NCBI GenBank assembly: GCA_947165145.1
Contig: CAMUZG010000012.1
Span: 1-62,897, forward strand
Direction: 5' to 3'
DNA from: an uncultured Selenomonadales bacterium
GTDB lineage: Bacteria; Bacillota; Negativicutes; Selenomonadales; Selenomonadaceae
DNA: 62,897 bases
The notes under the pieces were generated by a model. It was not told where the DNA came from, did no database searches, and was given only the letters and a program-made list of their open reading frames with translations. Positions 466 to 60,331 of this stretch are shown here, piece after piece (the stretch's first letter is position 1; every line of letters begins with the position of its first letter). Made by a program: the position numbers and the translations under genes.

Positions 466-1011
466 TTATTTGCCGAAGTAACGTTTCAGCAGACCTGCGA
501 AAGCTTTGCCGTGACGAGCTTCATCGCGTGCCATTTCGTGAACGGTGTCGTGAATTGCGTCGAGATTGAGAGCTTTGGCACGTTTTGCAAGATCCGTTTT
601 GCCGGCAGTAGCACCGTTTTCAGCCTCAACACGCATTTGCAGATTTTTCTCCGTGCTGTCAGTGAGAACTTCGCCAAGCAACTCCGCGAATTTGGCAGCA
701 TGTTCAGCTTCTTCTAAAGCGGCACGACGCCAGTATTCGCCGATTTCGGGATAGCCTTCGCGATAGGCAACGCGAGCCATAGCAAGATACATGCCGACTT
801 CCATGCATTCGCCGTTGAAATTTGCGCGAAGATCTTTCATGATGTCTTCGGGTGCACCCTGTGCGACGCCTACGACGTGTTCAGCAGCCCAAGTCATTTC
901 GCCAGCCTGTTTGGTGAATTTTTCGGCGGGAGCTTTGCAAATCGGGCACTCAATCGGCGGCTCGTCGCCTTCGTAAACGTAACCGCAGACACTGCATACA
1001 TACTTAGCCAT
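466..1011 (-). CDS. Rubrerythrin with N-terminal rubredoxin domain
   Basis: A 181-residue peroxide-reducing iron protein of anaerobes. Residues 6-9 (CSVC) and 22-25 (CPIC) form an N-terminal rubredoxin site. The rest is a ferritin-like diiron domain with EEAEHA near the middle and a DEARHG motif near the C-terminus. Classical rubrerythrins carry rubredoxin at the C-terminus, so this is the reverse arrangement known from clostridia. The start is the ATG at 1011, with GGAGG eight bases upstream; the longer frame to 1026 has no ribosome binding site. It has its own strong promoter and is probably monocistronic. Expected role: cytosolic NAD(P)H-dependent peroxide or oxygen detoxification. Confidence 0.92.
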
Positions 1012-1057
1012 AATTAAAACCTCCAAAATAAAACTTTTAAGTCATACGCTTATGCGG

Positions 1058-1086
1058 ATTATAGCACAGAGAAAATTTTTTGGCAA
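1058..1086 (-). promoter_or_regulatory. Promoter of the rubrerythrin gene
   Basis: On the minus strand TTGCCA (1081-1086) and TATAAT (1058-1063, preceded by TGC) are separated by 17 bases. This is a near-consensus vegetative promoter 46 bases upstream of the ATG. Confidence 0.8.
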
Positions 1087-1104
1087 CGTGACGGTTCAAG
1101 CGAT

Positions 1105-1482
1105 TTAGCGACGCCGACGCCGACCGCGACGTTGATTGCGCCAATCTTCTTCTTCATCGTTCTGCACGGGAACGGGTTTGGGCTTTTTGTTCAAGACGTA
1201 AAGTCCGCCGACGATTAAAATATCCAGCACGAACAGCACGATAATTGAGTAGGTGCTGTCGGATTCGGCTTTCGACCTGTCCTCGTAAGTCGTGAGCGAA
1301 TTTTTCGATGCGCCGACGTATTTTGTCCAAAAGCTTTCGAGTTTGCCGACGCCCGTTCTTTGCGAAATGCCCGCGTCGTAGGAAGCAATCGACATTGTGT
1401 TCGAGTTGACGCGCAGGACGAGATAAATGTTCGACAGAATCATGAAAACGATTAGAGCGATTGAAATATGTTTCTTCGACAT
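1105..1482 (-). CDS. Small two-helix membrane protein, unknown function
   Basis: A 125-residue protein I do not recognise. A hydrophobic segment at about residues 7-25 could be a signal anchor, and a second one lies at about 80-97. The loop between is about 55 residues and rich in Ser, Lys and Asp. The C-terminal tail is cytosolic by the positive-inside rule, starting with prolines and acidic residues and ending in an arginine cluster (RRGRRRRR). AGGAG lies eight bases before the ATG. It begins 15 bases after the ung stop, so it is probably co-transcribed with ung. Confidence 0.7.
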   Translation of the reverse strand: MSKKHISIALIVFMILSNIYLVLRVNSNTMSIASYDAGISQRTGVGKLESFWTKYVGASKNSLTTYEDRSKAESDSTYSIIVLFVLDILIVGGLYVLNKKPKPVPVQNDEEEDWRNQRRGRRRRR

Positions 1483-1497
1483 GAGAACGGCTCCTTT

Positions 1498-2175
1498 CTA
1501 CAAGTTCGGAATTTGCCAATCGATAGGAGTTTCGCCGATTGATTCAAGGAATTTGTTCACGCGCGAAAATGGTCGACTGCCGAAGAAGCCGCCGCTTGCC
1601 GACAACGGACTTGGGTGCGCCGATTCGACAATCAGATGACGCGAATTCGTTATCATCGATTTTTTGCGACGAGCAGGATTGCCCCACAAGATAAACGCCA
1701 GCGGTCGTTCGTGGTCGTTGAGCAGGCTGATAATTTTGTCGGTGAAAATTTCCCAGCCGTGTCCGCGATGTGAGTTCGCCGCGTGTGCTCTGACCGTCAA
1801 GACCGTGTTCAACAGCAAAACGCCTTGGTCAGCCCACGGTTTGAGGCAACCATTGTTCGGGACGGTACAGCCCAAATCGTCACGCAGTTCCTTGAAAATG
1901 TTCATCAACGACGGCGGCGGCGGCACGTTCGGCAAAACAGAAAAACTTAGCCCGTGAGCTTGTCCTGGTTCGTGATAAGGATCTTGCCCCAAAATGACGA
2001 CCTTTGTTGCCGCGTAGCTCGTGAAGTGTAGCGCGTTGAAGATGTCGTACATGTTCGGGAAAATTTGTTTCGTGCTGTACTCGTCAATCAAAAATTGCCG
2101 CAGTTCCCGATAATACGGCTCGTTCAGCTCGGCGTCCAACAGCTCCGCCCAATCGTTTCTAAAAATTTTTCTCAT
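1498..2175 (-). CDS. ung: Uracil-DNA glycosylase (family 1)
   Basis: Removes uracil from DNA as the first step of base excision repair. The 225-residue protein has the catalytic water-activating motif GQDPYH at about residue 62, the uracil-binding [10 protein letters not shown] strand, and the C-terminal HPSPLSA loop that inserts into the minor groove. Length matches the family. The ATG at 2175 has GGAG eight bases upstream; an in-frame ATG at 2196 lacks a site. It lies downstream of the folate genes in the same direction, separated by the 30-nt repeat. Confidence 0.96.
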
Positions 2176-2237
2176 GAAATTATCTCCGTTAATCATTTAA
2201 GCGCGGCGACTGGCTTAAAATTATCGTAACGTCACGG

Positions 2238-2267
2238 CGCGACCGTTGGGTCAAGCGTCACGCTTGC
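2238..2267 (+). repeat. 30-nt dispersed repeat, copy 2
   Basis: This is identical to 115-144 except for one base. It abuts the stop codon of the folK-folA fusion (TGA, 2268-2270 on the minus strand) and separates that gene from ung. Confidence 0.7.
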
Positions 2268-3182
2268 TCATCGCGAATATCTCCTAAACTCGAAGCCGTC
2301 AAAAATTTTCACGTCTCGCAAAATGAATTCGTCAACGTTCGGAAATAAAACGTCGGCTTGAACTTCGGCGTCGACGACCGTCAAAAAAATTTTCGTCGCG
2401 TAGGGAATGAGTTCGCTAAAAATTTCCGAGCCGCCAATAACAAAATTTTCTTCCGCAATGTTGAGCGTGTTAAAAAGTTCTTCAAGACTGCCGACAACTT
2501 CCGCGCCAAAAATTTTTTTCGTCGAACGGCTCAAAATGATATTTCTGCGACCGTCAAGCGGTTGAGCGTTCGGAAAAGTTTCAAGCGTCTTGCGCCCGAA
2601 AATTATCGTGTGTCCCAATGTGAGGCGACGGAAATTTTTCAAGTCGGCAGGGATTCTGAACAGCAACTTGCCGTTCATGCCAAGCCCAAAATTTTTGTCG
2701 ACGCACGCAATCAGCTTGAAGTTGAAATCAATCGGCGAACCGTTGACGCGTGAAATTTTTTCGCCGTGAAGTTTGCATTTGAGCGCGGGGAAAATTTCTT
2801 TCAGTGGAATCAACGCGAAGTCCCGCTCGAATAAAAATTTGTGCGGCACCGTCAATCGCTCCGAAGAAATTTCGCGTCCTTCAATCAGCAAGATGTCTAG
2901 GTCAAGCGTGCGTGCGCCCCAATGTTTGCGGCGAACTCGTCCGAATTCAAATTCAATGCGTTGCAGTTCGTCAAGCAGTTCAAGCGGCTCAAGTTCGGTT
3001 GAAATTTTTATCGCGGCGTTGAGGAAGTTTGGCTGGTCGACGACGCCCCACGGCTCCGTTTCATAAAACGACGACACCCGCAACAATTTGCCTGTGGGAA
3101 TATTTTTGACGCGTTCAATTGCCCGCCGCAATGTCTGCTGACGTTCGCCAAGATTGCTGCCTAATCCGACGTAACAAATCAC
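2268..3182 (-). CDS. folK: Bifunctional HPPK-DHFR fusion (FolK-FolA)
   Basis: A 304-residue fusion of two folate enzymes. Residues 1 to about 150 are 6-hydroxymethyl-7,8-dihydropterin pyrophosphokinase, with the N-terminal YVGLGSNLG, ETEPWG and RTLDLDILL motifs. Residues from about 155 are dihydrofolate reductase, with the active-site acid in IPADLKNF, the NADPH-binding FGRKTLE turn and the late IGGSEIF motif. The usual LPW before the DHFR acid is LLF here. HPPK acts before dihydropteroate synthase and DHFR acts at the end, so the fusion joins non-consecutive steps. Its start overlaps the folB stop by four bases, indicating translational coupling. Confidence 0.9.
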   Translation of the reverse strand: MICYVGLGSNLGERQQTLRRAIERVKNIPTGKLLRVSSFYETEPWGVVDQPNFLNAAIKISTELEPLELLDELQRIEFEFGRVRRKHWGARTLDLDILLIEGREISSERLTVPHKFLFERDFALIPLKEIFPALKCKLHGEKISRVNGSPIDFNFKLIACVDKNFGLGMNGKLLFRIPADLKNFRRLTLGHTIIFGRKTLETFPNAQPLDGRRNIILSRSTKKIFGAEVVGSLEELFNTLNIAEENFVIGGSEIFSELIPYATKIFLTVVDAEVQADVLFPNVDEFILRDVKIFDGFEFRRYSR

Positions 3183-22669: not shown

Positions 22670-22834
22670 CAACTTTTCTTTGCGTGCCCAAAGAAAAGTT
22701 GCAAAAGAAAGGGCACCTCGCAGGGGCGTTCAAGTCCAAACTGAGTCAGTGTTAAGACTACCCGTAAGTCATGGTTCCGGCAAAACGTCCTTTCCATGGA
22801 CGTGTTGCCGGCGGCCGTCATCCATGACGGCCTC
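22670..22834 (+). repeat. Three-hairpin dispersed element, copy A (between minC and minD)
   Basis: About 165 bp. Hairpin 1 is a 13-bp stem (22670-22682/22689-22701). A conserved single-stranded core containing GGGCACCTCGC and GGGGCGTTCA follows. Hairpin 2 is a 14-bp stem with one mismatch (22777-22790/22798-22811). Hairpin 3 is the palindrome GGCCGTCAT/ATGACGGCC (22813-22832). Related copies lie at 50193-50356 (reverse) and 60167-60331. It ends seven bases from the minC stop codon. Confidence 0.85.
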
Positions 22835-50192: not shown

Positions 50193-50356
50193 GAGGCCGT
50201 CATGGATGACGGCCGCCGGCAACACGTCCACGGAAAGGACGTTTTGCCGGAACTAAGAGCTACGGGTTGTTTCAACGTTGGAATCGTTTGGACTGAACGC
50301 CCCTGCGAGGCGCACTTTCTTTTGCTACTTTTCTTTGTGCGCGCAAAGAAAAGTAG
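50193..50356 (-). repeat. Three-hairpin dispersed element, copy B
   Basis: Reverse orientation. Close to copy A: hairpin 1 at 50325-50356, hairpin 2 at 50216-50250 (same sequence as A with a loop change), and hairpin 3 with a GAGGCC/GGCCTC stem at 50193-50216. The middle between core and hairpin 2 differs. It lies between divergent pyrH and the G-domain gene. Confidence 0.85.
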
Positions 50357-60166: not shown

Positions 60167-60331
60167 CTTACTTTCTTTGCTTGCCCAAAGAAAGTAAGCA
60201 AAGAAAGGGCACCTCGCGGGGGCGTTCAGTCTAAACGATTCCAGCGTCGAGACTACCCGTAAGTCGTGATTGTCGCCTTCGAAAACATCACGTTTTCTGG
60301 GCGACGGGGAGCCGTCATCCATGACGGCTCC
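60167..60331 (+). repeat. Three-hairpin dispersed element, copy C
   Basis: Hairpin 1 (60167-60179/60186-60198) and the core (GGGCACCTCGCGGGGGCGTT) match copies A and B. Hairpin 2 is built from a different sequence (GTCGCC 60272-60277 with GGCGAC 60300-60305, and GAAAAC with GTTTTC inside), so the fold is kept. Hairpin 3 is GAGCCGTCAT/ATGACGGCTC. It ends 27 bases from the GT2 stop codon. Confidence 0.85.

What the first reader, a model, noticed from the sequence alone, without database searches (positions are those of the whole stretch)
22670..22834. Three-copy structured repeat with a hairpin conserved by compensatory change
Copies at 22670-22834, 50193-50356 (reverse) and 60167-60331 share the same order: hairpin, unpaired GGGCACCTCGC...GGGGCGTTCA core, second hairpin, palindromic third hairpin. 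In copy C the second hairpin has a wholly different sequence yet still folds at the same place. That argues for selection on structure, either as RNA or as single-stranded DNA recognised by a protein. It may be a REP/MITE-like mobile unit or a family of small RNAs. I do not recognise it.
Basis: seen in the sequence. Interest (0 to 1): 0.78.

Follow-up and report, generated by a model that had tools for sequence, protein, structure and literature searches.

The report
Dispersed CsrA-type RNA with triple-helix end
The window holds three copies of a scattered bacterial repeat whose transcript would carry hairpins of the kind bound by the regulator CsrA and end in a knotted RNA triple helix; the same triple-helix end recurs in distant bacteria.

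Summary
The three copies are real and belong to a family with 38 places in this genome. In that strand the order is: hairpin P1 with loop AUGGAU, a swappable hairpin P2, a middle domain, then a pseudoknot. The pseudoknot's pyrimidine loop runs parallel to the purine strand of the long hairpin and mirrors it (U3CU4 with A3GA4, U4CU3 with A4GA3), the pattern of a U.A-U / C+.G-C triple helix: 113 of 116 parsed distinct copies obey it, at most 59 in shuffles. A 4-5 bp pseudoknot helix covaries too. Copy A is an insertion: 18 of 28 relatives compared have 21-31 bp where it has 245. Upstream hairpins match the CsrA consensus: 124 of 133 copies in CsrA-positive genomes, 0 of 24 in CsrA-negative ones. 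In Pseudoalteromonas the same triple helix directly follows TwoAYGGAY RNA (RF01731), already predicted in print to bind CsrA. RAYT-type transposase was not found here. Best reading: a mobile or formerly mobile repeat that spreads CsrA-binding, end-protected RNA. CsrA binding, transcription and present mobility are inferred, not shown.

The parts
22670..22834 (-). Copy A, whole structured unit in RNA sense (5' end at 22834)
   Evidence: R1 match 22670-22728 on '-'
22813..22832 (-). Copy A, P1: GGCCGUC AUGGAU GACGGCC (CsrA-type loop C-AUGGAU-G)
   Evidence: pair counts
22777..22811 (-). Copy A, P2 (type i), apical loop AUGGAAA
22711..22716 (-). Copy A, strand a of the pseudoknot helix (GUGCCC), pairs with loop 22684-22689
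22703..22710 (-). Copy A, third strand L1 (UUUCUUUU) of the proposed triple helix
22670..22701 (-). Copy A, long hairpin b/b' (13 bp; b' CAAAGAAAAGUUG supplies the purine strand)
50193..50356 (+). Copy B, whole unit in RNA sense
50195..50214 (+). Copy B, P1 with loop AUGGAU
50310..50314 (+). Copy B, strand a (GCGCA), compensatory to loop UGCGC
50316..50323 (+). Copy B, third strand L1 (UUUCUUUU)
50325..50356 (+). Copy B, long hairpin b/b'
60167..60331 (-). Copy C, whole unit in RNA sense; P2 type ii with loop GUGAU (no GGA); L1 U3CU3 with b' A3GA3
60308..60331 (-). Copy C, P1 (10 bp stem, loop region AUGGAU)
60167..60198 (-). Copy C, long hairpin b/b'

Best explanation
The repeat is an insertion-derived intergenic element that encodes a structured RNA related to TwoAYGGAY RNA. 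Shown by comparison: two upstream hairpins, P1 always and P2 usually with a GGA loop in this genome; and a 3' H-type pseudoknot whose pyrimidine L1 lies parallel to the purine strand of the long hairpin, in the pattern of U.A-U and C+.G-C base triples. Also shown: at least copy A was inserted between minC and minD. Inferred: when read through or transcribed, the GGA loops bind the CsrA dimer, so the dispersed copies act together as a CsrA-titrating pool and locally as CsrA sites in UTRs and intercistronic gaps. Also inferred: the triple-helix knot protects the RNA end or insulates its neighbours from exonucleases. How it moves is unknown; no RAYT was found here.
For: Family: 38 places in the genome (43 rows less 5 opposite-strand hairpin self-matches); 51 of 60 genus genomes and 49 of 300 class genomes at E 0.001 or better, many outside the genus weak. 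Triple helix: 113 of 116 parsed distinct rows parallel-matched; among asymmetric purine strands 78 of 80 parallel and 1 of 80 antiparallel; shuffle mean 43.8, best of 2000 is 59. Pseudoknot: 39 of 82 distinct pairs with 4 or more WC pairs, shuffle mean 11.5, max 22, with many different helix sequences. In this genome 12 of 25 pairs have double changes, 0 of 500 shuffles. Other lineages: the L1/b' match in Paraburkholderia, Burkholderia, Variovorax, Chitinibacter, Aeromonas, Pseudoalteromonas, Pasteurella and Ilyobacter; an a/a' helix, by my reading, in all of these but Burkholderia. CsrA link: 124 of 133 copies from 27 CsrA+ genomes carry C-x-GGA-y-G hairpins, 0 of 24 from 7 CsrA- genomes; UCC control 1 of 133; shuffle expectation 1.6. 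The genome has csrA. RF01731 scores above gathering 5' of the triplex, on its strand, at four places in Pseudoalteromonas, each followed within about 20 nt by the a strand and L1. Insertion. Strand: GGA loops and RF01731 lie on the triplex-sense strand; the varying a/a' pair has 7 G-U, 9 G-A and no A-C; b/b' has 6 G-U to 1 A-C after I dropped opposite-strand and spurious rows from the 7 to 3 printed.
Against: No transcript or binding data exist here. CsrA-negative genomes keep the triplex with a different upstream domain, so CsrA is not needed for the triplex, and CsrA status follows family lines, so kinship confounds the test; two of the CsrA-negative genomes are 72% and 84% complete, so absence there is less sure. 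10 of 37 copies here, window copy C among them, have a P2 loop CGUGAUG without GGA. Folding energy does not choose the strand: the other strand of copy A has z -5.95 against -4.94. One of five covariation measures, further pair types, is no higher than in shuffles (16 against a mean of 16.7). The sense bias towards neighbours is strong here (++ 22, -- 3 of 30) but not in G006 (4, 7), G071 (3, 8) or G028 (2, 2; 7 of 20 G028 and 5 of 5 G062 regions did not parse and were dropped). In G006 P1 carries a T-tail on the opposite strand, like a terminator, in 14 of 20 regions. Window copies do not reach the RF01731 cut-off (21.9 of 43 bits for A). A short-loop class (G006, G028, G034, G002, G315) lacks the a/a' helix.
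Confidence: 0.5

Rival explanations
1. A selfish DNA transposon end. The hairpins and the mirror-repeat triplex work as single-stranded or H-form DNA recognised by an unidentified transposase, and any RNA function is incidental.
For: Insertion at copy A; high copy and patchy spread; in a Paraburkholderia megaplasmid the 39 full-length matches printed form 19 inverted pairs plus one single, so the triplex sits at both ends like terminal inverted repeats; a triplex mirror rule also fits DNA; three of the seven genus genomes with a Y1 transposase are copy-rich (G002, G028, G061).
Against: No Y1 transposase in this genome; no triplex beside the 9 Y1 matches of relatives; no Pfam family beside more than 2 of 60 flanking proteins here; no target duplication could be made out; strand-specific G-U pairs and the GGA/CsrA association point to RNA.
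Confidence: 0.25
2. A REP-like mRNA end element. It sits at gene 3' ends and intercistronic gaps, stabilises or terminates transcripts in either orientation, and the GGA loops are chance or relics.
For: Many copies lie close behind stop codons; T-tailed P1 on the opposite strand in 14 of 20 G006 regions; strong fold on both strands of copy A.
Against: The GGA loop is kept while stems change (84 distinct hairpins) and is missing in the CsrA-negative genomes examined; T-tails are not general in G000.
Confidence: 0.2
3. A cis-acting leader (riboswitch-like or CsrA leader) controlling the next gene.
For: 22 of 30 copies here have both flanking genes in the RNA sense; over the 30 copies b' ends 13-271 nt before the next predicted gene.
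Against: The bias is absent in three other genomes; flanking genes share no Pfam family beyond pairs; copy A has no counterpart in the relatives compared.
Confidence: 0.05

Closest known systems
TwoAYGGAY RNA (Rfam RF01731, clan CL00106)
   Same: Two neighbouring hairpins with AYGGAY-type loops on the same strand. In Pseudoalteromonas four above-cut-off TwoAYGGAY matches are followed directly by this triple-helix pseudoknot.
   Different: Window copies score below the cut-off, P2 is replaced by other stems, and the matches to the Rfam model end before the 3' pseudoknot.
CsrB/CsrC/RsmZ-type CsrA-antagonist sRNAs
   Same: Repeated GGA in hairpin loops with the CANGGAYG consensus (the consensus itself is recalled).
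   Different: Here one or two sites per copy in tens of dispersed intergenic copies, not one sRNA gene with many sites; no own promoter shown; binding untested.
REP/RAYT and MITE repeats
   Same: Short, non-coding, intergenic, high copy, structured, insertion polymorphism.
   Different: No Y1 transposase here, no clear target duplication, and a pseudoknot with three-strand covariation, which I know from no such family (recall).
Triple-helix pseudoknots of telomerase RNA and SAM-II-type riboswitches (recalled, not compared here)
   Same: Pyrimidine L1 in the major groove of stem 2, parallel to its purine strand.
   Different: Here in a bacterial interspersed repeat, with mostly 7-9 predicted triples and position-covarying C+.G-C.
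Bp1_684 sRNA (RF02421) of Burkholderia
   Same: Overlaps b' and the 3' flank of the Burkholderia relative L356 on the same strand; RT-PCR-supported transcript in print (PMC3521395, passages read).
   Different: The Rfam match starts inside b' and misses the triplex and the upstream hairpins.

Membership tests
TwoAYGGAY RNA (RF01731) | Covariance-model score at or above 43 bits | tested here: not met
   Window: no match at gathering; copy A 21.9 bits
TwoAYGGAY RNA (RF01731) | Two adjacent hairpins with AYGGAY-type loops | tested here: inconclusive
   P1 AUGGAU in A, B and C; P2 AUGGAA (A), ACGGAA (B), GUGAU (C)
CsrA-binding RNA (CsrB/Rsm type) | GGA in loops of hairpins, in genomes with CsrA | tested here: met
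   124 of 133 copies in CsrA+ genomes, 0 of 24 in CsrA-; csrA in G000
CsrA-binding RNA (CsrB/Rsm type) | Binds CsrA and is expressed | not testable with these tools
   needs EMSA and RNA-seq
REP/RAYT | Companion RAYT (Y1_Tnp) in the genome | tested here: not met
   0 in G000 (82.8% complete); 7 of 60 genus genomes; 2 of 9 with 70 or more copies
MITE | Non-coding, dispersed, with empty sites | tested here: met
   one empty site tested, copy A
MITE | Terminal inverted repeats and target-site duplication | tested here: inconclusive
   No clear TIR or TSD in G000; inverted paired ends in Paraburkholderia
H-type pseudoknot with pyrimidine-motif triple helix | L1 parallel to and matched with the purine strand; a/a' helix; covariation | tested here: met
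   spatial structure not testable here

The most novel reading that the evidence does not exclude
A cross-phylum class of mobile bacterial repeats whose defining end is a natural RNA triple-helix pseudoknot with position-covarying C+.G-C triples. In Csr-bearing bacteria it carries CsrA-binding hairpins, so that a repeat family acts as a distributed CsrA sponge, domesticated or parasitic.
Probability: 0.35. Interest if true: 0.88.

Novelty: new variant of a known kind. Interest (0 to 1): 0.74.

Why it matters
If right, it gives TwoAYGGAY RNA, described in 2010 and predicted but not shown to bind CsrA (passages), a 3' domain, a repeat-family nature and a testable role. It would also be a natural, evolving series of Y.R-Y triple helices in bacteria, with tens of copies per genome. 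And it would show how binding sites for a global regulator can spread by insertion.

Tried and rejected
Rfam at gathering on the window: only three tRNAs. Leader hypothesis: set low after orientation differed between genomes. REP/RAYT: dropped. The pyrH neighbourhood of copy B gave no empty site because L072-L074 are not syntenic there; copies B and C and the other 35 places were not tested for empty sites. Phages: only chance-level matches for copy A and for the Burkholderia copy. Viral contigs with one exact 28-base pattern: 0. E. coli: no match for the Burkholderia copy. RNAalifold on the MAFFT alignment recovers only P1, part of the core and the long hairpin, and cannot show a pseudoknot. 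The first GGA-hairpin count (99 of 168 and 0 of 24) used a greedy pattern that missed real hairpins and included genomes whose CsrA status was not; one search replaces it. Hits in Leptospira and Borreliella plasmids were set aside as short, mostly coding, chance-level matches and not read. The Parabacteroides hit (L365) was read and gave no triplex.

Papers: only passages or search listings were seen. PMC4333381, PMC2864571, PMC8632094, PMC3521395 and PMC11882849: passages. Others: listings. The ten searches list no paper that, by title and abstract start, describes a triple-helix pseudoknot repeat; only open-licence PubMed Central text was searched.

Full report
What is there. The three copies are members of a repeat family with 38 places, one of them truncated, in a 1.94 Mb, 82.8% complete Selenomonadaceae-type genome (nearest named pyrH relatives). 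A core pattern gives 29 matches and 0 for the reversed control. The copies lie between the larger predicted genes; a few small, low-scoring ORFs overlap some of them. No Pfam family occurs beside more than 2 of 60 flanking proteins of 30 copies.

Which strand. Three things favour the other strand as the RNA: the GGA loops; the RF01731 matches in relatives, which share the strand of the triplex; and G-U rather than A-C pairs, 7 to 0 at the varying pseudoknot pair (with 9 G-A) and 6 to 1 at the foot of the long hairpin after I dropped opposite-strand and spurious rows from the 7 to 3 printed. Folding energy does not decide: the two strands of copy A give z -4.94 and -5.95.

Anatomy in RNA sense. 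P1 has a stem core with T-A, A-T and C-G exchanges and a GGA loop in 37 of 37 aligned copies. P2 is one of four hairpin types; 27 of 37 carry GGA and 10 carry CGUGAUG. A middle domain ends in CGCCCC[C/U]GCGAGG. Then come strand a, the pyrimidine tract L1, and the long hairpin b/b' whose loop holds a'. P1, b/b' and a/a' together, on 36 distinct rows: 25 pairs, 95.4% of cells paired, 12 pairs with double changes and covariation score 0.240, none of 500 shuffles as high; the number of further pair types (16) is not above shuffles; slid controls pair 37-57% of cells.

The triple helix. L1 is T_nCT_m and b' is A_xGA_y. Of 323 hairpin rows collected from the loci, 116 have both patterns in place; 6 more have the L1 tract but another purine strand, of which 5 fit with extra C opposite G by my reading and one (L198) is spurious; the other 201 lack a pyrimidine tract there, many of them the same hairpins read on the opposite strand, not sorted one by one. 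The match is parallel (m = y, n at least x) in 113 of 116, and in 78 of 80 rows with an asymmetric purine strand; the antiparallel alternative fits 1 of 80. Re-pairing L1 and b' at random gave a mean of 43.8 and at most 59 in 2000 shuffles. The rows come from one class and are related, so they are not 116 independent events, but several families and both asymmetric types are present. In the second helix 39 of 82 distinct a/loop pairs have at least 4 WC pairs (shuffle max 22). A short-loop class lacks this helix.

Beyond the class. The L1/b' match is found in Paraburkholderia, Burkholderia, Variovorax, Chitinibacter, Aeromonas, Pseudoalteromonas, Pasteurella multocida and the fusobacterium Ilyobacter; an a/a' helix was evident to me in all of these except the Burkholderia copy. 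In a Paraburkholderia megaplasmid 39 full-length R2 matches make 19 inverted pairs and one single, so there the knot is at both ends of a roughly 0.5 kb unit. The Burkholderia copy has no match in E. coli genomes.

Link to TwoAYGGAY. In Pseudoalteromonas loci L360 and L363 four RF01731 matches exceed the cut-off of 43 bits (65.1, 65.1, 51.8, 51.3), and in all four the a strand and L1 follow within about 20 nt. Aeromonas L358 scores 41.5, window copy A 21.9.

Mobility. For minC-minD, 60 genus genomes matched and the 29 relatives whose loci were fetched were compared: 28 gave both genes, of which 18 have 21-31 bp and 10 have 68-133 bp of other sequence, against 245 bp with copy A; one (G063) was incomplete. 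Many of the empty-site genomes carry the family elsewhere, which fits insertion rather than loss. Y1 transposase is not found in this genome and is present in 7 of 60 genus genomes, one of them below the curated cut-off; of the 9 genomes with 70 or more copies two have it (G028, G061), and of the seven with it two have no copies (G007, G027). None of the 9 Y1 loci holds a triplex in its flanks. Copy counts are capped near 92.

CsrA. CsrA is found in 163 of 300 class genomes, including all 25 sampled of this genus, and in this genome, where the residues I recall as critical, L4 and R44, are present. Counting only genomes whose status one search gives, 124 of 133 distinct triplex copies in 27 CsrA+ genomes have at least one C-x-GGA-y-G hairpin within 260 nt upstream, and 0 of 24 in 7 CsrA- genomes (four printed as negative, three absent from the 163 positives); the UCC control is 1 of 133 and the shuffle expectation 1.6. 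Copies with less than 200 nt of upstream sequence or a duplicate 120-nt upstream were dropped before this count, and the numbers per genome are uneven (36 from this genome, 22 each from G006 and G028, 16 from G071). The CsrA- copies instead carry other upstream sequence, often GUUUGAGCGNAGCGAGUU. The confound is that CsrA status follows families. That TwoAYGGAY may bind CsrA was proposed before (PMC4333381); what I add is the 3' triple-helix domain, the repeat-family nature and the association with CsrA.

How it works. Structure: strongly supported by comparison. CsrA binding: likely, untested. Pool or sponge role and end protection: inference. Mobiliser: unknown. I therefore file it as a relative, not a member, of TwoAYGGAY RNA, working like a CsrA-ligand RNA spread by insertion.

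Noticed in passing
L275-L289 (G071) and L012: A second repeat with GCAACGTGACGTTGC and GAGGCCGCCCACGGACGGGCGGCC surrounds several G071 copies; GCAACGTGACGTTGC also appears next to copy L012 of this genome.
   Followed up: no
L359, L373, L375, L376, L377: In CsrA-negative Negativicutes and in Variovorax the sequence upstream of the triplex holds GTTTGAGCGNAGCGAGTT-type motifs instead of GGA hairpins.
   Followed up: partly
L395-L413 (Paraburkholderia megaplasmid): Units about 0.5 kb between triplex ends, with further inverted ends GCTGGCATCCGCG...GCGTTGCCCCTGTGCGGGGCGGCACC outside the hairpin.
   Followed up: partly
L360 (Pseudoalteromonas), 889-3073: TwoAYGGAY matches alternate in orientation with a spacing near 750 bp, like an array of inverted pairs, with a third C-AUGGAU-G hairpin 3' of the triplex.
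   Followed up: partly
L318-L323, L326, L327, L329, L342: minC-minD gaps of relatives: Ten relatives without the element there have 68-133 bp of other short, partly repetitive sequence (such as GGAATTAGGAATT or AAAGCTAAAAGCT) at the same site, so the gap seems to tolerate inserts.
   Followed up: no
L255-L274 (G006): P1 carries T-tails on the strand opposite to the triplex sense in 14 of 20 regions, like intrinsic terminators, and the end of b' lies 3-11 nt from the neighbouring predicted gene in 12 of 20 copies.
   Followed up: partly
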